Assembly (NCBI GenBank): GCA_903896015.1
Contig: CAITWF010000059.1
Location: forward strand, 1 to 64,000
DNA length: 64,000 nucleotides
Reading direction: 5' to 3'
Source of the DNA: an uncultured Opitutia bacterium
GTDB lineage: Bacteria; Verrucomicrobiota; Verrucomicrobiia; Opitutales; Opitutaceae
Positions within the stretch are counted from its first letter, which is position 1. Each line of letters starts with the position of its first letter. Positions 12,728 through 62,494 of this stretch are shown here, one piece after another. Both the position numbers and the translations under genes were made by a program. The notes below the pieces were generated by a model, which was not told the DNA's origin, made no database searches, and saw only the letters and a program-made list of their open reading frames with translations.

Positions 12728-13588
12728 CTACGTGCGGGCCAGCTTGTAGAGCGCGTGCTCGCCAGGGAATCCATCGAGCGGGTGCGAGCCCACCGGCTCG
12801 CACCGGCATTCCGGCGGCAGCGCCGCGAGTGCCGCCGCGCTCACGATCGAATCGTCGCCGAGCTTCGAGCAGACCTTCTCCATGCGGAAAACGTAAATGA
12901 CATCGGAGCCGGACAGATTGTCCGCCCCACCGGCGCCGCCGGAGACGCTGGCCATGCCGTGGTGGAGTACCAGTCGAAAGTCGGGATTTCGCGCCTGCTG
13001 GAGCACCGCCAGTTCGCGCATCGCCGCGGCCACCCGGGCCGCGCGCTGATCGTCGTGCACCCAGTAGGCAAAGATCGCGTCGCCGAGAAACTTATCCACT
13101 GTGCCACCAGCGGCCTCGATCACGTCACGACATTGCCGCAGCCACGTGCCAACGTTTTGGGCCAGAACGTCGATGTCCAGCTGATTGGCGAGCGCGGTAT
13201 AACGCTTGATATCAAGCATCAGAAACCAGCAGCGCTGGCTCGCTCGCACCGGCACGGTCGCTGGAATCTCCGTATCGGCGGCCAATCCAAAGGCATTAAA
13301 CTCCATCTTGAAAGTGAACTCCTCTTCCCCGATGCGGATGCCGTCGCCGCTTTTCAGGCGCGCCGGGATTGTCACGCGCTTGCCGTTCAGCAGGGTGCCG
13401 TTGGTGCTGCCCAAATCGGCGAGCCAATACTCCAAATGCTGATCCGCTCTTTGCGCGTGAATGTGGGCATGGCGGCGCGAGGCGCTGGTGGACATGAGGC
13501 GCACCTCATTGCTCGACGACCGGCCGAAATGGCAGTTGGACTCGATCGGGATTTGGCGCCCGTCGGAAGTTTCGATCCACGCGTTCAT
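12728..13588 (-). CDS. FHA domain-class III adenylate cyclase
   Basis: 286 residues. The FHA phosphothreonine-binding domain has FGRSSSNEVRL at 21-31, SRRH at 37-40 and GSTNGT at 60-65. A class III cyclase domain follows from about 118: metal Asp126 in LDIKRYTAL, and VDKFLGDAIFAYW at 164-176, which supplies a Lys at the base-selecting position (favouring ATP) and Asp170. There is no membrane segment. The FHA domain gives a simple route for the Ser/Thr kinase of the neighbouring operon to control cAMP synthesis, and the two-cNBD protein could be the receiver. The gene is convergent with that operon. Domain calls are secure, the circuit is inferred. Confidence 0.88.
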   Translation of the reverse strand: MNAWIETSDGRQIPIESNCHFGRSSSNEVRLMSTSASRRHAHIHAQRADQHLEYWLADLGSTNGTLLNGKRVTIPARLKSGDGIRIGEEEFTFKMEFNAFGLAADTEIPATVPVRASQRCWFLMLDIKRYTALANQLDIDVLAQNVGTWLRQCRDVIEAAGGTVDKFLGDAIFAYWVHDDQRAARVAAAMRELAVLQQARNPDFRLVLHHGMASVSGGAGGADNLSGSDVIYVFRMEKVCSKLGDDSIVSAAALAALPPECRCEPVGSHPLDGFPGEHALYKLART

Positions 13589-52057: not shown

Positions 52058-52171
52058 GTGCGCACCGTAATAACGCGCCCCGCCCGTGCAACCGCACAGT
52101 GGGTTTTATGACCACGATCGCTTTCGGGATTGCACGTAGGCGCGCAGCCGCTCTGTTCGCCCATTCCTCGC

Positions 52172-54517
52172 ATGTCTGTTGCCGCCGCTCCGTCCCCCAA
52201 CCTGCTCAACGCCGATCACGTCCTCCGCGTAGCTGCGGAGTTGAACATCAAGGTCGCCCAAGTCGCCGCCACCGCGCAGCTCTTCGCCGAAGGAGCAACC
52301 GTCCCCTTCATCGCGCGCTACCGCAAAGAGGTCACCGGCGAACTCGACGAAGTCCAAATCACCGCCATCCGCGATCGCCTCGAACAGATGCGCGCGATCG
52401 ACGAGCGCCGCGACGCCATCCTCGCTTCGCTCAAGGAGCGCAACCTCCTCACGCCCGCCCTCGAAAAGGCGATCCACGCCGCCGCCACCCTCGCCGAACT
52501 CGAGGACATTTACCTTCCGTTCCGCCCAAAAAAACGCACCCGCGCCACCATTGCGAAAGAGAAAGGCCTCGAGCCCCTCGCCGAACTCCTCTGGGCGCAG
52601 GACGCCTCGACCGATCCGCTCGCCGCCGCGCAGGCCTACGTCGGCCGCGACTACACGGCGGACGACGGAAAAAATCTTCCCGCGAAAATCGCCTCGATCG
52701 AAGAAGCGCTCACCGGTGCACGCGATATTCTCGCCGAGCGCATCAGCGACGACAAAGACGCCCGTGCCCGCCTCCGTGCTGTTTTCCAGAAGGACGCCGT
52801 GATCTCGTCGAAGGTCATGCTCGGCAAAGACGCCGATCCCGAGGCCGCGAAATTCAAAGACTACTTCGCGTGGAACGAGCCGCTCGCAAAGGCACCCTCG
52901 CACCGTATCCTCGCCATGCGCCGCGGCGAAAAGGAAGGCTTCCTCATGATGCGGGTGCAACTCGCCGACGAAGCCGCGGCCGCCGCCGAAGTGCAGTCAC
53001 TCTTCGTAAAAAACAAGGGCGCCGCTGCCGTGCAGGTCAGCCTCGCCGTGCAAGACGCCGCCAAGCGCCTCCTCAGCCCCGCGATGGAAACCGAGATGCG
53101 CCTCGAATCAAAAAAACGCGCCGACGAGGCCGCGATCAAAGTCTTCGCCGACAACGCCCGCGAACTTCTCCTCGCCGCCCCACTCGGTCAGCGCGCCGTG
53201 CTCGCGATCGATCCGGGCTTCCGCACGGGCTGCAAATGCGTGCTCCTCGATCGCCAGGGCAAGCTGCTCCACAACGACGTCATCTACCCCGATCGCCACG
53301 CCGAGGAGGCCAAGGAAAAGATCCTCGGCTTCGTGAAGTTCTTCAAAGTCGAGGCCGTCGCGATCGGCAATGGCACCGGCGGCCGCGAAACGGAAGCCTT
53401 CGTCCGCGCGCTCGGCCTGCCTGCCACGATTCCCGTCGTCGTTGTCAACGAGTCCGGCGCCTCGATCTACTCCGCGAGCGAAGTCGCCCGTGAAGAATTT
53501 CCCGATCACGACCTCACCGTGCGCGGCGCCGTCTCGATTGGCCGACGCCTGATGGACCCGCTCGCCGAGCTCGTGAAGCTCGATCCAAAATCGATCGGCG
53601 TGGGCCAATACCAGCACGACGTCGATCAGTCCGCGCTCAAGCGCTCGCTCGACGACTCAGTGATGCTTTCCGTGAACCGCGTCGGCGTCGAAGTGAATAC
53701 CGCCTCGAAGCAACTCCTCAGCTACGTCTCCGGTCTCAACGCCACCGTTGCCGCCGCGATCGTGGCGCGCCGCAACGAAAAGGGCGCGTTCAAGTCGCGC
53801 GCCGATCTCAAGGAAGTTCCGCGCCTCGGGCCCAAGGCGTTTGAGCAGGCGGCTGGATTCTTGCGCATCCGCGACGGCGCGCATCCGCTCGATGCCAGTT
53901 CGGTTCACCCCGAGCGCTACGCCCTCGTCGAAAAGATGGCCGCGGACTGCGGCGCGACCGTCGCTGATCTCATGCGCGACGGAAAACTCCGTGCGAAGAT
54001 CAAACTGGAAAACTACGTCACCGCCGACGTCGGCCTGCCCACGCTCACCGACATCATGGCCGAGCTGGCCAAGCCCGGCCGCGATCCACGCGAGCAGTTT
54101 GAGGCGTTCAGCTTCACCGAGGGCGTCAACAAGCCCGAGGACTTGAAGCCCGGTATGAAGCTGCCTGGCATTGTCACCAACGTCACCGCCTTCGGCGCGT
54201 TCGTGGACATCGGGGTGCATCAAGACGGCCTCGTGCATGTCTCGCAACTCGCCGACACGTTCGTGAAAGAGCCCAACACGATCGTTAAGCCCGGCCAGAA
54301 AGTTCGCGTGACGGTCACCGAGATCGATCTCCCGCGGCAGCGGATCGCGCTCTCCATGAAGAGCCAGCCGCAGCTTGGACCGAAAACCGCGGCGGGCGCC
54401 GCAGGCCCGCGAACCGGTCCCGGCGGTCCGCGACCGGTGGCGGGTTCACCTGTGCCGCGGGCCCCTCAGGCCGTGAATAATGATTGGTTTAGCGCCGCGC
54501 TGAACAAGAAGCGCTGA
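52172..54517 (+). CDS. tex: Tex-family RNA-binding transcription accessory protein
   Basis: 781 residues from the ATG at 52172; the frame opens at 52130. N-terminal helical domain with ATVPFIARYRKEVTGELDE, YqgF-like domain with LAIDPGFRTGCKCVLLDRQGKLL, helix-hairpin-helix region (VEVNTASKQLLSYVSGL; RLGPKAFEQAAGFLRI), and a C-terminal S1 domain (GIVTNVTAFGAFVDIGVHQDGLVHVSQLAD). A Pro/Gly-rich tail follows. Tex binds RNA and affects transcription in most bacteria. Monocistronic, with a terminator at 54566. Confidence 0.96.
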   Translation: MSVAAAPSPNLLNADHVLRVAAELNIKVAQVAATAQLFAEGATVPFIARYRKEVTGELDEVQITAIRDRLEQMRAIDERRDAILASLKERNLLTPALEKAIHAAATLAELEDIYLPFRPKKRTRATIAKEKGLEPLAELLWAQDASTDPLAAAQAYVGRDYTADDGKNLPAKIASIEEALTGARDILAERISDDKDARARLRAVFQKDAVISSKVMLGKDADPEAAKFKDYFAWNEPLAKAPSHRILAMRRGEKEGFLMMRVQLADEAAAAAEVQSLFVKNKGAAAVQVSLAVQDAAKRLLSPAMETEMRLESKKRADEAAIKVFADNARELLLAAPLGQRAVLAIDPGFRTGCKCVLLDRQGKLLHNDVIYPDRHAEEAKEKILGFVKFFKVEAVAIGNGTGGRETEAFVRALGLPATIPVVVVNESGASIYSASEVAREEFPDHDLTVRGAVSIGRRLMDPLAELVKLDPKSIGVGQYQHDVDQSALKRSLDDSVMLSVNRVGVEVNTASKQLLSYVSGLNATVAAAIVARRNEKGAFKSRADLKEVPRLGPKAFEQAAGFLRIRDGAHPLDASSVHPERYALVEKMAADCGATVADLMRDGKLRAKIKLENYVTADVGLPTLTDIMAELAKPGRDPREQFEAFSFTEGVNKPEDLKPGMKLPGIVTNVTAFGAFVDIGVHQDGLVHVSQLADTFVKEPNTIVKPGQKVRVTVTEIDLPRQRIALSMKSQPQLGPKTAAGAAGPRTGPGGPRPVAGSPVPRAPQAVNNDWFSAALNKKR

Positions 54518-54565
54518 CGCGCTCCGTGCGGCCAACGGCCCACAGAAGGTTTGATTCTGGTTCGA

Positions 54566-54587
54566 CGCCCCGCAGGCTCACGGGGCG
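54566..54587 (+). terminator. Probable terminator of tex
   Basis: CGCCCCG-CAGGCTCAC-GGGGCG type hairpin (arms CGCCCCG at 54566-54572 and CGGGGCG at 54581-54587), followed by ctcgttt. The T tract is short, so it may be a weak terminator. Confidence 0.65.
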
Positions 54588-54625
54588 CTCGTTTGCCAAA
54601 GGCCAATCGTAATCATACTTTACAA

Positions 54626-55795
54626 ATGGTCTTACCAAATGCTAACTACGATAGCATGATTGGCCGCCCCTTCTGGCACGATCGCCTTGAACAGGCGTGG
54701 CGCGAGGCATCGATCGTCTGGCTCGCGGGGGTGCGTCGCTCCGGCAAAACCACGTTGGCACAAAGTCTGGGCCCCGAGTGCAGTCTCTACGTCAATTGCG
54801 ATCTGCCCGCCACCGAAGACCGGGTGCGTGATCCCGTGCTGTTCTTCCGCCAGTGCGACCAGCCGGTCATGGTGCTGGACGAGATTCACCAACTGCGCGA
54901 TCCGAGCCGGCTGCTGAAGATCGCCGCGGATGAGTTCCCCAAACTCCGCGTGCTGGCCACCGGTTCATCGACGCTCGCTGCGAGTAAAAAATTCCGGGAC
55001 ACCTTGACGGGGCGAAAGCGGCTGGTCCACCTCGTGCCGGCTTTGACCGGCGAACTCCCCGCCTTCGGCGCCACCCTGGAGAAACGCCTCTATCACGGCG
55101 GATTGCCTCCGGCGTTGCTCGCCGCCAGCAAGCAGCCGGCGTTCTACCGCGAATGGCTCGATTCGTTTTTTGCGCGCGATATCCAGCGGCTGTTCGCGTT
55201 TCGCGATATCAACCGGTTCAACGCCCTCTTCGAATACGTGCTGCGGCAAAGCGGTGGGCAGTTGGAGACCTCCCGCACGGCCTCCGCTCTGGGGATTTCC
55301 CGGCCGACGGTGGAAAGCCACCTGCAGGCACTGACCATCACGCAGGCGCTGACCCTGGTGCGCCCGTTTCACGGCAGCGGGCAGGGCGAGATCGTCCGCC
55401 AGCCCAAGGCCTACGCGTTTGACACCGGCTTCGTAAGCTTCGCCCGCGGCTGGGATCCGCTGCGCCCGGCAGACCGTGGAATTTTGTGGGAGCACCTCGT
55501 CGTCGAAGCTTTTCAGGCGCTGTGGCCCGGCGAGCCAGTACGCTACTGGCGCGACAAGGCCGGCCGCGAGGTAGACTTTGTACGCCCGCGCAACCGCGAC
55601 ACGGTGGATGCCTACGAATGCAAATGGGACCCGGATGATTTCGACGCGGCGGCGCTCAAGGCCTTCCGGGCGGCCTACCCCAAGGGGAACAATTATCTTG
55701 TCACACCGCTGACTGGCCCAGCCTACCAGAAGCGCGCGCAAGGTCTGGAGCTGAAAGTCTGCGGACTCGACGGCCTCGCCAAGTCTGACGCATGA
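54626..55795 (+). CDS. DUF4143-type AAA ATPase
   Basis: 389 residues from the ATG at 54626 (MVLPNANYDS); an ATG at 54656 is an alternative. Walker A is GVRRSGKTTLAQ, Walker B is MVLDEIHQL, and a sensor segment is LATGSS. A helix-turn-helix lies at about 210-240 (TASALGISRPTVESHLQAL), and the C-terminal DUF4143 region has GILWEHLVVEAFQALWP and WRDKAGREVDFV, a PD-(D/E)xK-like fold. Family members are of unclear function and often sit with toxin-antitoxin or defence genes. The stop overlaps the start of the TIR-cyclase gene by ATGA. Confidence 0.85.
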   Translation: MVLPNANYDSMIGRPFWHDRLEQAWREASIVWLAGVRRSGKTTLAQSLGPECSLYVNCDLPATEDRVRDPVLFFRQCDQPVMVLDEIHQLRDPSRLLKIAADEFPKLRVLATGSSTLAASKKFRDTLTGRKRLVHLVPALTGELPAFGATLEKRLYHGGLPPALLAASKQPAFYREWLDSFFARDIQRLFAFRDINRFNALFEYVLRQSGGQLETSRTASALGISRPTVESHLQALTITQALTLVRPFHGSGQGEIVRQPKAYAFDTGFVSFARGWDPLRPADRGILWEHLVVEAFQALWPGEPVRYWRDKAGREVDFVRPRNRDTVDAYECKWDPDDFDAAALKAFRAAYPKGNNYLVTPLTGPAYQKRAQGLELKVCGLDGLAKSDA

Positions 55796-58263
55796 GCGAC
55801 GCCGCCAACAAAGCTGTCTTTCTCAGCTACGCATCCCAAGACGCGGAGGCGGCGCGGCGCATTTGCGAGGCGCTGCGGTCGGGCGGTGTCGCGGTCTGGT
55901 TTGACACCGATGGGGGACTTGAACACGGCGACGAGTGGGACGCGAAGATCCGCCGCCAAATCAAGGAGTGTGTGTTTTTCGTTCCGCTTATTTCTGCAAG
56001 CACGCAGGCCCGGCTCGAAGGCTATTTCCGGATTGAATGGGATCTCGCGGCGGAGCGGGCCCGGGGAGTCGCCGCCGGCGTCCCGTTCATTTTGCCCATC
56101 GTGATCGACGACACGCGCGAGCCCGACGCGCTCGTGCCGGATCGTTTTCGGAAGGTGCAGTGGACGCGGTTGCCGGGCGGTGTCGTGCCGCCCGAGGTGC
56201 AGGCGCGCTTACTAAAGCTCTGGTCGCATCGCGTGGGCGTGCTCGCGCACAACGAGGGTCGCACGCTCGGCCCCGCTTATGCACCACCCGTTCCGTTCAC
56301 GATGGCGCCGGGTGAAACGCGTGCGCCCGGCCTCGAGAGCCCGGTAGAGGGCAACACGACCTTTGGCGGCCGGCGACTGGCCGCGATCGTTTTCACCGAC
56401 GCCGTGGGTTACTCGGCGCGCATGCAGGCCGACGAGGCGAGCACGCTCGCCCTCGTGCAATCGGATTTCGAACAGATGCGCCGGCTCTGCGTGCAACACG
56501 GCGGCCAGACGTTGAAGTCGACGGGCGATGGATTGCTGATGTGTTTCGACAGCGTGATCGACGCGGTGTCCTGTGCGTTGGCGATCCAGGCGGGCTTTGC
56601 CAGACGAGGCGTCAGCGCGTTGCAGCACCGCATCGGAGCGCATTTGGGCGATATTTATCACCACGCCGGCGACGTCGCGGGCGACGGCGTGAATCTCGCG
56701 GCGCGTTTGCAGACCGCCGCACAACCGGGCACGATCTGCGTCAGCGATGTGGTGTTTGCCGCCGTCAAAGGCAAGGTGGCGCTGGAATCGATGGCGCTCG
56801 CGCCGCTCGCGTTGAAGAACATCGCGCAGCCGCAGGCCGCACACTTGATCGCGCCGGTCGGCACGCGCCTGGCGGCGAGCGCGGGGGCGCGCAGCCGGCG
56901 CAGGTGGGTGTTCGCTGCGGCGGGGGTGGTGGTGCTGGCCGCGGTCGCGGTGCTCTTACTGCGTGGTCCGGAAAAAACGGTCGTGCCCGCCGTCGCTCCG
57001 AGCGGGAACCGGGTGGCACCCGCGGCGGAATTTCCGCACGATCCTAATCTCAAGCGCGCACGGGCGCTCATCTACGAGATCAACAGCATCGCCGCGGACT
57101 TTGCGCTGGCGGACGACCTCGTGAAGCCGTTGCTGGTGGAGCGGCCCAACGATCCCGAGGTCGTGACCGTGGCCGCGGAAATCTCCGCAGAATATCTCAT
57201 CCGCGGGTTTGACACCACGCAACCGCGCCGCGCTCAGGCCCAGCGGCTGGGCGAGCGCGCGGTGCAGCTCGCGCCGGACAATCCGGCCGCCCTCGCCGCG
57301 CTCGGCCGCTACCTCCGCTACGACAACAAGACGCAACTCGCGCGGGCCGAAGCATTGCTGCGCCAGGCGATCAAGATCGATCCTACGGAACCGCGCTATT
57401 ATCGCTACCTCTACTCGGTGCTCATCGTCACCCAACCCGGGCCTGACACCGCGGCGTTTGGCGCGCGCATGGCGACGTTGTTTCCGCATGACCCGGTCGT
57501 GACCTATGAGATCGCCGTGCTCCACCTGTCGGTCGGCGACCTCGCCGCCGCGGAAGAGGGATTTGATCAAACCCTGAAGCTGGCGCCGGTGGCCAACGCG
57601 ATCACTTCGAAGGCGAGGCTCAGGCTTGAGGTGCACGCAGACGTGGAGGGCATGAAGCTCTGGCTCGACCGTATGCCAGAGCGCCAGCGGACCAACGCCC
57701 GCTTCGCGAACGCCTGCGCCGTGGCCGCCCTCGTGACCGGCAAGACCGACTCGGCGCGGCAAGTGCTGGCGGCGATCACGGACCCGTGGCTGACGGATGC
57801 CGGTTACATTTTCCCCAAGGTCATGCTGCTCGGCGATCTGGATGCCATCGATCGGAAAGACGACGTCGCACGGCTCGACTACGAAGCGGCGTTGGACGAG
57901 ATCAATCAAGCGCTTGCCGCCGAGGCGACGGACCTGCGTCCGATCCGCGCCAAGTTATGGGTGCTCCTTGGGCTCGGCCGCCGGCAGGAAGCGCTCGCGG
58001 CGTTGCGGATCAACTTGCAGAGGCGACCGACGCCCTATCACTGGAATATGGGTCTCACGTGGTGGACCAGTGCCCTGCGGGCCTGCCTGCTGCTCGGCGA
58101 ACGCGCGGAAGCAATCACCCTGCTCAAGGAAGCCTGTGCGGAATCGCAAGGTCGCCTGCTTCTGCGCAACCTGTTTAAGGTCGATCCGAAGATGGCACCG
58201 TTCCGCGATGATGCGGAAATCGCCGCGCTGCTCGCCGATCCGAAAAATTCCGTGCCCCTGTAA
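55792..58263 (+). CDS. TIR-adenylate cyclase-TPR membrane protein
   Basis: 823 residues. The TIR domain at about 8-140 has FLSYASQDA and Glu82 in RIEWDLA at the NADase catalytic position. A class III cyclase domain at about 194-355 has metal Asp203 in FTDAVGYS, Lys242 and Asp246 in TLKSTGDGLL; Lys242 favours ATP. A single membrane segment lies at about 373-394, then TPR-like helices to the end. TIR plus cyclase in one protein implies NAD- and cAMP-linked signalling. It is translated with the DUF4143 ATPase. Domain order is directly visible, the pathway is not. Confidence 0.85.
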   Translation: MSDAANKAVFLSYASQDAEAARRICEALRSGGVAVWFDTDGGLEHGDEWDAKIRRQIKECVFFVPLISASTQARLEGYFRIEWDLAAERARGVAAGVPFILPIVIDDTREPDALVPDRFRKVQWTRLPGGVVPPEVQARLLKLWSHRVGVLAHNEGRTLGPAYAPPVPFTMAPGETRAPGLESPVEGNTTFGGRRLAAIVFTDAVGYSARMQADEASTLALVQSDFEQMRRLCVQHGGQTLKSTGDGLLMCFDSVIDAVSCALAIQAGFARRGVSALQHRIGAHLGDIYHHAGDVAGDGVNLAARLQTAAQPGTICVSDVVFAAVKGKVALESMALAPLALKNIAQPQAAHLIAPVGTRLAASAGARSRRRWVFAAAGVVVLAAVAVLLLRGPEKTVVPAVAPSGNRVAPAAEFPHDPNLKRARALIYEINSIAADFALADDLVKPLLVERPNDPEVVTVAAEISAEYLIRGFDTTQPRRAQAQRLGERAVQLAPDNPAALAALGRYLRYDNKTQLARAEALLRQAIKIDPTEPRYYRYLYSVLIVTQPGPDTAAFGARMATLFPHDPVVTYEIAVLHLSVGDLAAAEEGFDQTLKLAPVANAITSKARLRLEVHADVEGMKLWLDRMPERQRTNARFANACAVAALVTGKTDSARQVLAAITDPWLTDAGYIFPKVMLLGDLDAIDRKDDVARLDYEAALDEINQALAAEATDLRPIRAKLWVLLGLGRRQEALAALRINLQRRPTPYHWNMGLTWWTSALRACLLLGERAEAITLLKEACAESQGRLLLRNLFKVDPKMAPFRDDAEIAALLADPKNSVPL

Positions 58264-61200
58264 TGCCGATGAGCGAAACCACCAAAGCCGTCTTTCTGAG
58301 CTACGCGTCGCAGGACGCGGAGGCCGCGCGTCGCATTTGCGAGGCGCTGCGGTCGGGTGGCGTCGAGGTGTGGTTCGACGCCGATGGCGGGCTCGAGCAC
58401 GGCGACGAGTGGGACGCGAAAATCCGCCGCCAAATCAAGGAGTGCGTGCTCTTCATCCCGGTCATCTCCGCGAACACGCAGGCGCGCGAGGAAGGTTATT
58501 TCCGGATCGAATGGGACCTCGCCGCGGAGCGCGCGCGCGGCATCGCCTCGGGCGTCCCTTTCATCTTGCCCGTCGTGATTGACGATACGCGCGAACCTGA
58601 AGCGCTCGTGCCAGATCGTTTCCGTGCGGTGCAGTGGACGCGTCTGCGCGGCGGTGACGTGCCAACCGAGGTGCGGCAGCGTTTCCTCAAGCTCTGGTCG
58701 CATCGCACGGGTGTTTTGAAGCAGCAAGCGGCCGATCACGATGCGGCACCCGCCGCAGCCCTGTCCTCGGCGCCGGTGCCGAATCGAAAACCGGGTGCCA
58801 AGCCCTACCCGCTCATCGCCGTCGCGGTAGTCGCTTTCGCCGCAACGCTCGGCTGGTGGCTGCTCCGCGGAAGAAAGACCGCCCACCTCTCGCAACCGGC
58901 CGTGCCCGCGGAGCTGAAAACCGCACCCGCCGCCGCGCCGCTCTCGGAGGCGCGGCAGTTGGTCGCGAAGGCGCGCCCCCTCTTCGAGGGCCTGGACGTC
59001 ACCCGAGAAGACTTTGCCTTTGCCGAGGACTTGTTGAAGCAGGCGGTGGCCAAGGACGGCGCGGATGCGGACGTGTGGGCCGCCTGCTCCGAGCTTCACC
59101 AGCGCTACATCGTCCGCGGTTGGGATGTGACCGACCAACGCCGCGAGGCCGCCCAAACCTCGGCCCAACGGGCGCTGCGAATCGATCCGGGCTCCTACGA
59201 GGCGCGCTTCGCTCAAATCGGTCTTTCCGGCGACTCGCCGCGCGAACTGACCGAAGCGGAGCGAGCGTTGCGCGCATTGCGCCCCGAGCGACCGGATGAT
59301 CACCGCTTGCTTCAGGCCCTCGGCGGTGTGGTCCGGAAGCTCAACCGCCAAGACGAGGCCAGCGCGATCTACGACGAAGCGGCCGCGCTTCCGGGCGGCG
59401 ATCCGCTCGCGCTCTACGACAAGGCGCTCGATATGTGGTTCGTCGGACGCACGACGGAGGCCGAGGCGGCGATTAAGGCCGCGATCGCGCAAAAGCCGTT
59501 TTCCAGCGCGTTGCTCATGAGCGGCTGGTTCAAAATGATTTTGCACGGCGACCTCGATGGCGCGCTCACCGATCTAAACCAGGCACCCGCTTGGGTGTTT
59601 CGCGAGGACCGCGGCTGTTTCTTTGCCTTCGTCCTGCATGTGTGTCGTCGCGAGCCCGACGCCGCTCTGGCGGCCCTCCGCGCCTCGCCGCGCGACTGGC
59701 TCAATGACAACTGGCACCGCGGTCCCAAGGGAGAACTCGCGGGCGATGCGCTGAAGCTCGGCGGCCGGGACGCAGCCGCCATCGCGGAGTGGCGCGCTGC
59801 GTTGAAGCTGGTGGAGTCCCGCCTCGCCACGGCTTCGACCGATCCACATCTGGTCTACAACCGGGTCATGCTACTGGCGAAATTGGGCGAGCGGGGCGAG
59901 GCAGAGCGGCAGTTCGCCCTTTTGGCCCAGCTTGCCGGCTTCAACCCCGCCGACAGCAAGCCCATGCCATTCTATTTCGCCGACCCGCTCATCGCGCTGG
60001 GCCGGCACCACGAGGCCATCCAAGTGATCCGCCAAAGCCTCAAGCTCGAAGCCCACGCCGTTAATTTCCCCTCCGCGGCTCTGCGGCTTGATCCGACCTG
60101 GGATCCGCTGCGGAGTGACCCGGAGTTTACCAAGGTCATCGCCGAGGCCGAGGCCGTCGAGAAAGGCACGACGCTTTCAATGGGAACGAACCGCACGCCC
60201 GACGAAAAATCTGTCGCCGTGCTCGCCTTCGCGAATCTCTCCGACGACAAGGGCAATGAATATTTCTCAGACGGCATCAGCGAGGAGCTGCTCACGGTGC
60301 TGCAGAAAATTCCCGGACTGCACGTCGCGGCGCGGACGTCGGCGTTTTCGTTCAAGGGCAAGAATGCGACCGCGCAGGAAATCGGCACGACACTCAAAGT
60401 TGCGCACTTAGTCGAAGGCAGCGTCCAGAAATCCGGCAACCGCGTGAAGATCACCGCGCGCCTGAGCCGCGCCGCGACGGGCGAGGAATTGTGGTCGAAG
60501 AGTTTTCCGCCGCGCGAACTGACGGATGCGTTCGCCGCGGAAAGCGAGATCGCACTGGCGATCGTCGCCGAGCTGCGCGGCCGGCTCGCGGGCGACGCCA
60601 CCGCCCAGGCGGTCATCGAAGCACAGGTGCAGGCCGCGGAAATTGGCGGCACGAAGAAGGTCGAGGCTCGGCAACTTTACTTGCAGGGGAAGTTTTTCGC
60701 GAACCAGTTCAACGGCGAAAACGTGCGCCGGGCCGAGGAGCTGCTGCAACGCGCGGTGGAGTTGGATCCGCAGTTCGCGCAGGCCTGGGCGGCGCTGGCG
60801 CGCACGGCGTCGATCGACGCCGGCTACGCGGATACCCGAGGTGCAGTCGAGGCGGCCAACGCCCTGGCCCGCCGCGCGTCCGACCGCGCGCTCGCCCTGG
60901 CACCGGGGCTCGCCGCCGCGCGACGGCGCTGGCCCCCGGCGACGCCGCCGTGGTGGCGAGCGCCGCGAACCTCGCGTACTATTTCGGCCAGATCGACCAG
61001 GCGATCGCCCTCTCGCAGCAGGGTGTGGCGCTTGACCCGGTGAATCCGGTGCTGCGCGTGACCTACGCATCCGCGTTGACTTCGGCCCGACGCTTCGACC
61101 TGTCGAGTGCGGAGTATCACCGTATTGTCGAGCTCAGCCCCGCGGCTCCCTGGGGCCATGCCGGCCCGAGCCAAAACCTCTCGCTGCAGGGCCGGTACGA

Positions 61201-61540
61201 CGAAGCCGCGGCAGAAGCCGCGCTCGAGGTTCCCGAATGGTCGCGGACCTTCGCCCTTGCGCTCGCTCAATGGGGACAAAAGAAAACCGCGGAAGCCGAT
61301 GCCACTCTTGCCTCGTTCATCAAAACGGACGCCGAGATCGCTGCCTACCAGATTGCCGAAATCTACGCTTTTCGCGGCGACCACGACCACGCCTTCGAAT
61401 GGCTCGAGCGCGCCGACCGTCAGCACGACCCCGGCTTGGCGTGGACCAAACCGGACCTGCTGCTCGAATCCCTCCATGCCGACCCTCGGTGGGCGGCGTT
61501 CATGTTCAAGCTCGGGCTCACGGACGAGCAGCTGAAGTGA
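58263..61540 (+). pseudogene. TIR-TPR-TolB-like protein with internal deletion and frameshift
   Basis: The TIR domain is a close paralogue of the preceding one (FLSYASQDAEAARRICEALRSGG in both; Glu83), and a membrane segment lies at about 183-198. TPR-like helices follow. A TolB-type N domain at about 645-780 has SVAVLAFANLSDDKGNEYFSDGISEELL and AHLVEGSVQKSGNRVKI. The open frame from 58263 runs to 61043, but its last about 40 residues are out of frame. From about 60925 the coding signal moves to another frame (APGDAAVVASAANLAYYFGQ) and continues to 61540. One TPR-sized piece is lost at the junction between two ALALAPG copies. Either a mutated gene or an assembly error. Confidence 0.8.
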
Positions 61541-61546
61541 ACGCGC

Positions 61547-62494
61547 TCAGACGCCCACCCACGCCAGTCCCGCGCTGATCCAAAGTGGAATCGTGAAGAG
61601 ACCGACGGCCGTCGTGCCGAAGACGATCTGCACCGCGGTCTGTGGATGCCCGCCATAGAGCCGCGCCACAATCACCGTGATCATTGCGGTCGGCATCGCC
61701 GCCTGCACGACGATCACGCGCTTCAACTCTACGGGGCAAGGCAGGTATTTCGCGAGCAGCAGCAACGCGATCGGCAGCACGCCGAGCCGCAGCGCCGCCG
61801 CCGCGCCCGCGATGCGCGCGTCGAACAGCTCGGCCGGCCGGTCCAGGAAATTCGCGAGGCTCACTCCCGTCATGATGAGCCCGAGCGGCACGCCGCACAC
61901 GCCGAGCGCGTGGATCGCGTCGGTCGCGACTTTCGGCAGGTGCGGGGTGACGCCCGTGAGATTGCAGACCACCGCCGCCACAAGCGTGATCACGATCGGG
62001 GTGACGAGCCGGCGCCAGCCGGCGCGCAGGGATTCGCCACTCAGCACTAGGAGCCCGACCGTCCACAGCGCAGCCTCGACGCCGACATTGTGGACGAGCA
62101 GCACACCGCGGCTGTCCGGCCCCCAGATCCCCTCCATGATCGGCAGCGGCAGATAGCCGTAGTTGGTGATGCCGACGGCGAGCGCAAATGTTCGCAGCCC
62201 CGTCCCCACCTGCAGCCCGATCATTTTTGCCACGATGAGCCCCGCGCGAATCCCGAGAAACGTGATTCCGAAACCGACGAGCGGCGGCAGCAGCAGGTTG
62301 CCCGGCGTGCGCAGCGCGGCGTTGCCCGCGACCGACTCGAAGATGAGCGCCGGATAACACAGATTGACAACGAGCCGGATGAGACTCGTCTCCGCCTCGC
62401 CCTCGATCCAGTGCACGCGCCGCACGACCACGCCGATCGCGATGAGCGCGAACACCGGCACGACGAGCGCGAGCAGTTGCCAATAGGACATCAT
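61547..62494 (-). CDS. AEC-family permease (auxin efflux carrier type)
   Basis: 315 residues with about ten hydrophobic segments. The N-terminus LLALVVPVFALIAIGVVVRRV and motifs NLCYPALIFESVAGN, GITNYGYLPLPIMEG, GLIMTGVSLANFL and VVQAAMPTAMITVIVARLYGG are typical of bacterial AEC transporters, which carry malate, malonate and similar small organic acids. It is convergent with the TIR gene and divergent from the following gene. Confidence 0.88.
   Translation of the reverse strand: MMSYWQLLALVVPVFALIAIGVVVRRVHWIEGEAETSLIRLVVNLCYPALIFESVAGNAALRTPGNLLLPPLVGFGITFLGIRAGLIVAKMIGLQVGTGLRTFALAVGITNYGYLPLPIMEGIWGPDSRGVLLVHNVGVEAALWTVGLLVLSGESLRAGWRRLVTPIVITLVAAVVCNLTGVTPHLPKVATDAIHALGVCGVPLGLIMTGVSLANFLDRPAELFDARIAGAAAALRLGVLPIALLLLAKYLPCPVELKRVIVVQAAMPTAMITVIVARLYGGHPQTAVQIVFGTTAVGLFTIPLWISAGLAWVGV

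What the first reader, a model, noticed from the sequence alone, without database searches (positions are those of the whole stretch)
54626..58263. DUF4143 ATPase translationally coupled to a TIR-adenylate cyclase-TPR protein
The ATGA overlap makes these two products a pair. The second joins a TIR domain with the NADase Glu, a cyclase with metal Asp residues, a membrane segment and TPRs. TIR-linked NAD depletion and cyclic-nucleotide signalling both occur in anti-phage defence, but a single protein carrying both with this ATPase is not a system I recognise.
Basis: inference. Interest (0 to 1): 0.6.

Follow-up and report, generated by a model that had tools for sequence, protein, structure and literature searches.

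The report
TIR-cyclase membrane receptor beside mobile ATPase
A bacterium carries a likely membrane receptor that joins two signalling enzymes, one that probably destroys NAD and one that probably makes cyclic AMP, within a large family of immune-like receptors, next to a wandering ATPase gene that keeps turning up in the same kind of gene array.

Summary
An AAA_14-DUF4143 ATPase overlaps (ATGA) a TIR–class III cyclase–TM–TPR protein. Two corrections: the ATPase probably starts at 54656, and a third gene, a frameshift-broken TIR-TM-TPR paralogue (58263-61540), follows with a 1-base overlap. The second protein belongs to a large Opitutaceae family of TIR-TM-TPR receptor-like proteins, often in tandem arrays (23 TIR matches in this genome): near-constant TIR (median 71% identity within loci), divergent TPR (33%), mostly N-in topology, Glu82 kept in 73 of 73. 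The cyclase seems inserted between TIR and TM: 7 such genes found in 4 of 252 family genomes; two also carry a kinase. DUF4143-TIR co-occurrence is real: two DUF4143 clades have a TIR gene within 200 bp downstream in 14 of 17 cases, other family DUF4143 genes in 0 of 24 loci. But DUF4143 goes with TIR receptors in general, not with the cyclase version (1 of 7); the TIRs behind it are scattered on the TIR tree, and 13 loci of relatives elsewhere showed no TIR. So it is a recurrent mobile array member rather than a dedicated partner. Closest known logic: Pycsar, but its cyclic-nucleotide-binding effector domain is missing. Immune function is inferred, untested.

The parts
54614..54655 (+). conserved promoter/operator-like element in front of DUF4143 (CATACTTTACA...TGCTAAC...), apparently for a leaderless start
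   Evidence: Position. Last 45 bp before the shared Met: mean pairwise identity 0.58 over 14 genes, against 0.26-0.27 further upstream; one of the 14 (L149) has the element further upstream of the Met used and does not line up. A sigma-70 scan of 54450-54800 found nothing, so 'promoter' is inference.
54656..55795 (+).
   Evidence: Pfam; 35 of 35 aligned sequences keep G25, R27, G30-K31-T32, D75-E76, E279, E305, D307, E321, K323; model pLDDT 91.9; residues 1-265 match 2qen Z 15.7, and residues 1-272 plant TIR-NLR RPP1 7dfv Z 13.3.
55792..58263 (+). TIR - class III cyclase - TM - TPR protein (P0002, 823 aa)
55816..56175 (+). TIR_2 domain; putative catalytic Glu = E82
   Evidence: Glu in 73 of 73 TIR rows; that it is the catalytic Glu is by motif position, recalled
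56368..56835 (+). class III cyclase domain: D203, D246 (metals), K242, D294 (base), N301, R305
   Evidence: alignment to 3mr7 and to 13 other cyclase rows, numbering; roles of the residues recalled from the class III cyclase literature
56905..56961 (+). transmembrane segment, residues 372-390 (WVFAAAGVVVLAAVAVLLL), inside one long helix 360-390
   Evidence: mean hydropathy 2.77; 5 K/R before, 3 after; helix 360-390 in model
57043..58233 (+). TPR superhelix (residues 418-814), predicted periplasmic
   Evidence: Pfam TPR_19; model pLDDT mostly above 90
58263..61540 (+). third gene of the array: TIR-TM-TPR paralogue broken by a frameshift (open frames 58263-61043 and 60491-61540)
   Evidence: TIR_2 E 5.6e-19; homologue L095:5506-8826 (1106 aa) aligns its residues 1-847 to the first frame and 894-1102 to the second

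Best explanation
P0002 is a single-pass inner-membrane receptor of an Opitutaceae TIR-TM-TPR family. The variable C-terminal TPR domain probably lies in the periplasm and binds a ligand or senses envelope disturbance; binding clusters the N-terminal cytoplasmic domains, the TIR cleaves NAD+ and the cyclase, inserted between TIR and membrane, makes cAMP, giving two outputs from one sensor; the likely role is defence or self/non-self conflict. The DUF4143 ATPase is a small mobile gene unit with its own promoter-like element that has repeatedly entered such arrays and now leads this operon; it is an accessory or passenger, not an obligatory partner of the cyclase version. Shown here by computation: domains, intact motifs, paralogue family, constant-TIR/variable-TPR pattern, recurrent DUF4143-TIR adjacency. 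Inferred: topology, ligand sensing, enzyme activity, order of the cyclase insertion, mobility mechanism, defence.
For: 23 TIR_2 matches in the genome but one DUF4143. Pairs of TIR proteins within a locus: TIR more alike than C-terminus in 64 of 65, medians 0.71 and 0.33. Of 62 proteins with a TM behind the TIR, 42 have more K/R before it, 11 after, 9 tie; 6 had none in the searched stretch and 5 of the 73 were too short to judge. TPR of P0002 is closest to TIR-TM-TPR proteins without cyclase (besides the fusions of G012 and G029), and no cyclase-only protein is among the 36 rows at E <= 1e-6, so insertion of the cyclase is inferred. E82 kept in 73 of 73. DUF4143 clades A/B: TIR within 200 bp downstream in 14 of 17, controls 0 of 24 loci. 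TIRs behind DUF4143 scattered on the tree (A 3 changes for 3 rows, B 4 for 4). Truncated TIR pieces just upstream of the DUF4143 element in 6 of 18 clade A/B genes (L141, L142, L145, L107, L108, L161), none in the window itself. P0001 relatives at 52-73% (full-length) in bins of other phyla, no TIR found.
Against: No activity or phage data. P0003 has nearly balanced charges round its TM (3 before, 4 after), so topology is not certain for each member. The close, often ATGA, spacing and the intact DUF4143 motifs would also fit a functional pair. The arrays also hold broken genes, so some members may be decaying. Nothing was obtained that shows DUF4143 to be a passenger. The TIR tree rests on 136 columns and many forks are open.
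Confidence: 0.45

Rival explanations
1. Dedicated two-protein defence unit: the STAND-like ATPase (NTPase region + winged helix) with a nuclease-like tail is the switch, and the TIR-TM-TPR protein is sensor and effector, in effect a TIR-NLR split over two coupled genes.
For: ATGA coupling; two separate DUF4143 clades both found with TIR arrays, 14 of 17; AF2 model of the first 265-272 residues resembles plant TIR-NLR RPP1 (Z 13.3), CED-4 and Apaf-1; PDC-S01 hit.
Against: 21 of the 23 TIR matches in this genome lie outside this operon, and the genome has one DUF4143; TIR arrays without DUF4143 exist (L113 within 19.9 kb; no P0001 match in that genome); the other six TIR-cyclase genes have none; P0001 relatives sit beside kinase or methyltransferase genes in L147, L152, L140; the fold resemblance is expected of many P-loop ATPases.
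Confidence: 0.25
2. Ordinary environmental signalling: the protein is a cyclase-TPR-like sensor whose TIR only scaffolds, with cAMP as the output and no role in immunity.
For: Cyclase proteins with a hydrophobic segment and no TIR occur in the family (six complete-domain examples in L118-L121, L123, L124; TPRs shown for L121); cyclase residues complete.
Against: E82 invariant in 73 of 73 TIR rows; large TIR paralogue expansion with broken copies and divergent sensors looks like conflict genes.
Confidence: 0.2
3. A decaying array with no present function: remains of recombination around TIR genes with an inserted selfish ATPase gene.
For: Third gene frameshifted; 23 5' TIR stubs against 77 full copies in the fetched loci; the whole block, with tex, is absent at the same place in the same-genus genome G013.
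Against: P0001 and P0002 are open over their full length with all motifs; TIR-cyclase genes 85% identical over the TIR-cyclase part are open in G012 and G029 too.
Confidence: 0.1

Closest known systems
Pycsar (PycC cyclase with PycTIR or PycTM effector; recalled from the literature)
   Same: A class III-type nucleotide cyclase and a TIR effector act in one antiphage system.
   Different: Here TIR and cyclase are one membrane protein; Pfam found no cyclic-nucleotide-binding domain in the three operon proteins; no cyclase model of PADLOC was hit (I did not check which Pycsar models it holds); residues K242/D294 look like those of adenylate cyclases (recalled).
TIR-NLR / STAND immune receptors (RPP1, CED-4, Apaf-1 as fold relatives)
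   Same: TIR output, repeat sensor (TPR instead of LRR), and a STAND-like ATPase fold in the same operon.
   Different: ATPase on a separate chain; the receptor has a membrane segment; no evidence of complex formation.
AAA_14-DUF4143 ATPases (COG1373 recalled; PADLOC PDC-S01)
   Same: Full family architecture and motifs.
   Different: Clades A and B are mostly found in TIR arrays; none of the control rows shows an ORF of 300 aa or more starting within 100 bp behind DUF4143.
Cyclase-TM-TPR and kinase-TolB-TPR sensors (rhizobial-type, recalled; L118-L124 here)
   Same: Same layout of cytoplasmic output, one membrane segment, repeat domain.
   Different: A TIR domain stands in front; in two G059 genes TIR, cyclase and kinase are stacked in one chain.
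Thoeris and CBASS TIR effectors (recalled)
   Same: Bacterial TIR NADase logic.
   Different: No ThsA-like, SAVED or CD-NTase gene in the operon or directly beside it.

Membership tests
AAA_14-DUF4143 ATPase family | AAA_14 and DUF4143 Pfam domains over cut-off | tested here: met
   73 and 90.4 bits against cut-offs 27 and 28.1
AAA_14-DUF4143 ATPase family | Walker A/B and PD-(D/E)XK-like E...D...ExK residues | tested here: met
   invariant in 35 of 35 rows; motif names recalled
Catalytic TIR (NADase) domain | TIR_2 match and conserved Glu at the catalytic place | tested here: met
   61.3 bits, cut-off 28; E82 in 73 of 73
Catalytic TIR (NADase) domain | NAD+ cleavage | not testable with these tools
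   needs an assay
Class III nucleotide cyclase | two metal Asp, base-specifying pair, Asn and Arg | tested here: met
   D203, D246, K242, D294, N301, R305; roles recalled
Pycsar | PycC-family cyclase | tested here: inconclusive
   PADLOC-DB 2.0.0 gave only TIR models for P0002 at E <= 1e-3, but I did not verify that PycC models are in it
Pycsar | TIR effector with a cyclic-nucleotide-binding domain | tested here: not met
   no such Pfam domain in P0001, P0002 or P0003 at E <= 1e-3
Thoeris / CBASS | ThsA-type, SAVED or CD-NTase gene in the operon | tested here: not met
   operon is DUF4143, TIR-cyclase, TIR-TM-TPR, between tex and a Mem_trans gene
STAND / TIR-NLR receptors | STAND NTPase in the same protein as TIR and repeat sensor | tested here: inconclusive
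   STAND-like fold but on a separate chain; Pfam calls it AAA_14
PADLOC PDC-S01 candidate | HMM match to PDC-S01 models | tested here: met
   E 2.3e-46; a candidate, not a proven system

The most novel reading that the evidence does not exclude
Opitutaceae carry a membrane-bound analogue of animal and plant TIR receptors: tandem arrays of one-pass proteins with a near-constant cytoplasmic TIR and variable extracytoplasmic TPR sensors, in which further output enzymes (cyclase, and cyclase plus kinase) have been stacked behind the TIR, and to which a STAND-like ATPase/nuclease is recruited as a separate, translationally coupled switch: a split, surface-sensing TIR-NLR with several second messengers.
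Probability: 0.2. Interest if true: 0.85.

Novelty: new variant of a known kind. Interest (0 to 1): 0.55.

Why it matters
If right, it is a bacterial receptor that looks outward through a variable TPR domain and fires two enzymes, NAD cleavage and cAMP synthesis, on one chain. That makes it testable whether cyclic nucleotide and TIR signalling, separate proteins in Pycsar (recalled), can be one switch. It also gives DUF4143 ATPases, named in one paper of the library searched, a concrete recurrent genomic context.

Tried and rejected
Chance overlap: rejected, since DUF4143-TIR adjacency recurs in several genera. One inherited DUF4143-TIR block: not supported, as the TIRs directly behind clade A (3 rows) and clade B (4 rows) genes need 3 and 4 changes on the tree (starred branches force 3 and 2), though the tree rests on 136 columns and many forks are open. 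Palindromic operator for the window's own DUF4143: tested and not found (score 7, at another place); inverted repeats scoring 8 or more occur in 7 of 10 clade B genes and in other DUF4143 genes, in no clade A gene. Origin by TIR joining a cyclase-TPR protein: not favoured. Sigma-70 promoter or terminator at 54450-54800: none. Rfam and tRNA scans of the window: nothing. Solved structures with sequence similarity to P0001: none at E <= 1. In the fold comparison the part behind residue 291 was barely tested. P0001 in phages: 3 records; in plasmids: 294 records; all under 60% identity.

Literature. Searches that gave nothing for the combination: DUF4143 with 'TIR domain', 0 papers; TIR domain, adenylate cyclase, TPR, Verrucomicrobi, 0; DUF4143 alone, 1 (listing only); Opitutaceae with TIR, 1 (listing only). 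Other listings seen. Two papers were seen in passages only: PMC10907252 and PMC7159879 (which mentions TIR and cyclase domains among bacterial conflict systems and holds no 'DUF4143'). The library holds open-licence papers only, so 'not in print' is not claimed.

Limits of the counts: at most 8, 7, 7 and 5 candidates per genome were scored and the row lists were cut, so fusion and clade counts are lower bounds. Loci L105-L110 were fetched because their TIR neighbours had been seen; clade B membership was then fixed by identity alone (10 full-length genes at 75% or more, next 49%), and the 17 include the two query genes (without them 12 of 15, p about 1e-7). One clade A gene (G148) was dropped, as its contig ends behind it; a partial clade B gene (G141) was dropped. 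Among the 14 positives, two downstream TIRs are themselves broken (L108, L160) and five start 91-160 bp behind the stop, some after a TIR remnant. Controls dropped: L102, L103, L111 (fragments), L125, L170, L173 (no downstream flank); one control (L179) has only 445 bp downstream. Three controls (L110, L177, L178) have TIR genes near, but on the other strand. The genes are related, so Fisher's test overstates independence. The TIR model used outside the family was built from Opitutaceae TIRs and may miss distant ones. Of the 23 5' stubs, two are one place in L107 and two (L025, L028) are nearly full length.
Full report
What is there. The window lies in contig C59 of a 4.96-Mb draft genome. Named records that carry the closest P0001 relatives are Opitutaceae or Opitutia bins, so I call its family Opitutaceae; that is inference. 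At 52130-54517 lies tex; then DUF4143 (54656-55795), the TIR-cyclase-TM-TPR gene P0002 (55792-58263), a third TIR-TM-TPR gene (58263-61540, frameshifted) and, on the other strand, a Mem_trans gene (61547-62494). The stop of DUF4143 and the start of P0002 overlap as ATGA; P0002 and the third gene share one base.

The ATPase. P0001 has AAA_14 and DUF4143 and matches PADLOC's PDC-S01 at 2.3e-46. In an alignment of 35 sequences the Walker motifs and E279, D307, E321, K323 (numbering from Met 54656) are invariant, the pattern of a PD-(D/E)XK-like module (motif recalled). The AF2 model has mean pLDDT 91.9. Its residues 1-265 align with the archaeal ATPase 2qen (Z 15.7, rmsd 3.3, 243 residues), 1-264 with 2fna (Z 14.2), and 1-272 with plant TIR-NLR RPP1 (7dfv, Z 13.3, rmsd 4.2, 233 residues); CED-4 and Apaf-1 follow: a STAND-like NTPase region. 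Fold likeness shows no function.

Start and leader. In 14 clade-A genes and closest relatives, from Opitutaceae and bins of other phyla, the last 45 bp before the shared Met keep a mean pairwise identity of 0.58, against 0.26-0.27 in the 75 bp before that; family against outside members 0.55. One of the 14 (L149) has the element further upstream. The element CATACTTTACA... runs almost into the ATG. I infer a promoter with a leaderless start; a sigma-70 scan found none.

The receptor. P0002 has TIR (9-128), cyclase (193-348), a TM (372-390) and TPRs; its model (pLDDT 82.9, weaker over the TIR) shows a cyclase-like domain, one long helix 360-390 through the membrane segment and a TPR superhelix 418-814. 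E82 is Glu in 73 of 73 TIR rows; cyclase residues D203, K242, D246, D294, N301, R305 are all present, while the four fusions of G059 have Asn and Gly at the base-specifying places, so their substrate may differ.

The family. This genome has 23 TIR_2 matches, some of them partial; 19 ORFs of the fetched stretches matched the TIR query, and P0002 alone of these has a cyclase. G059 has 93 TIR_2 matches, G013 (same genus) 20. In 65 pairs of TIR proteins lying in the same fetched locus the TIR is more alike than the C-terminus in 64 (medians 0.71 and 0.33). Of 73 TIR proteins, 62 had a TM behind the TIR: K/R counts favour N-in in 42, the opposite in 11, tie in 9; 6 had none in the searched stretch (in L115 and L117 the kinase pushes it further out) and 5 were too short.

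The cyclase insertion. TIR-cyclase proteins appear as 7 genes in 4 of 252 family genomes: here, G012, G029 (both 85% identical) and four in G059; among 387 genomes drawn over the phylum only G000 and G012, both of this family, show it (at most 5 candidates scored per genome). The TPR region of P0002 scores highest, apart from the fusions in G012 and G029, with TIR proteins that have no cyclase (500.7 bits for one with two such regions, then 455.9 and 433.7), and no cyclase-only protein is among the 36 rows listed, so I infer that the cyclase came in between TIR and TM. Two of the G059 proteins also carry a protein kinase domain behind the cyclase (L117, L115).

The pairing. Clade A (80% or more to P0001) has 8 members found in 252 genomes; of the 7 with downstream sequence, 5 have a TIR gene within 200 bp downstream (this genome, G147, G138, G080, G215), G183 and G186 do not. 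Clade B (75% or more to the G145 gene) has 10 full members, 9 with a TIR gene downstream, G123 without. Other full-length DUF4143 genes of the family with a downstream flank: 0 of 24 loci (25 genes). Fisher p 1.9e-8, without the queries 1.2e-7. The TIRs behind DUF4143 are scattered. The other six TIR-cyclase genes have no DUF4143 in the fetched stretches, which hold 2.8 to 9.9 kb upstream.

Signs of movement. Truncated TIR pieces, ending at TIR residues about 15, 33, 35, 37, 67 and 70, stand just before the DUF4143 element in 6 of 18 clade A/B genes (L141, L142, L145, L107, L108, L161; not in the window), in none of 12 outside or 46-56% relatives; one control, L177, has a piece on the other strand. 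A full TIR follows in 5 of the 6; in L142 the contig ends, and in L108 the following TIR is itself broken. Over the fetched loci my script counted 77 full TIRs, 23 5' stubs, 2 3' fragments, 1 internal and 2 at edges. P0001 relatives at 52-73% (full-length; a partial one in L158 has 88% over 113 residues) lie in bins labelled as Betaproteobacteria, Myxococcales, Chloroflexi, Planctomycetota and others (13 loci; bin labels may be wrong), none with a TIR by my model; behind two of them stand a kinase (L147) and a zinc-ribbon-kinase-TPR protein (L152). In the same-genus genome G013 the Mem_trans orthologue lies directly beside the genes that precede tex here; tex, DUF4143 and both TIR genes are missing there; in G173 tex and Mem_trans are about 1.9 kb apart, without TIR.

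Reading. I take P0002 as a two-output membrane receptor in a rapidly turning-over TIR array, and DUF4143 as a mobile gene that recurrently joins such arrays. Whether DUF4143 serves the receptors is open; the recurrence in two clades is the strongest hint that it might. Pycsar is the nearest known system by logic (recalled), but the cyclic-nucleotide-binding effector domain was not found and membership of the cyclase in PycC was not settled.

Noticed in passing
L117:6349-10080 (-) and L115:1-3176 (-), genome G059: One chain with TIR, cyclase and protein kinase domains, followed in L117 by a hydrophobic segment and TPRs: a possible triple-output receptor; the kinase match covers about three quarters of the Pfam model and the DFG motif reads DIG.
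   Followed up: partly
upstream of DUF4143 genes, e.g. L178:8088-9242 (-), L131:9457-10617 (+), clade B loci L105-L107, L109, L160, L161: Subfamily-specific inverted repeats, mostly close to the start codon: 27 of 55 DUF4143 upstream regions score 8 or more, against 5 of 56 control ORF starts. Suggests autoregulation or a cassette end.
   Followed up: partly
L177:7600-13400, L161:1600-6200: Arrays with many truncated TIR 5' ends, in L177 interleaved with short repeated DNA; 23 5' stubs against 2 3' fragments over the fetched loci. The cause of the asymmetry is unknown.
   Followed up: partly
window 58263-61540: The third gene of the array is broken by a frameshift; whether real or an assembly error is not known.
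   Followed up: partly
L221 (G013:C83:60000-78000): The same-genus genome lacks tex together with the DUF4143-TIR-TIR block; only S1-domain matches to tex were found in that draft.
   Followed up: partly
window 12728-13588 (-): Weak cyclase-like match (27.5 bits with my own model), not listed by PF00211.
   Followed up: no
genome G059: 93 TIR_2 matches in one 8.4-Mb draft genome (contamination estimate 6).
   Followed up: no
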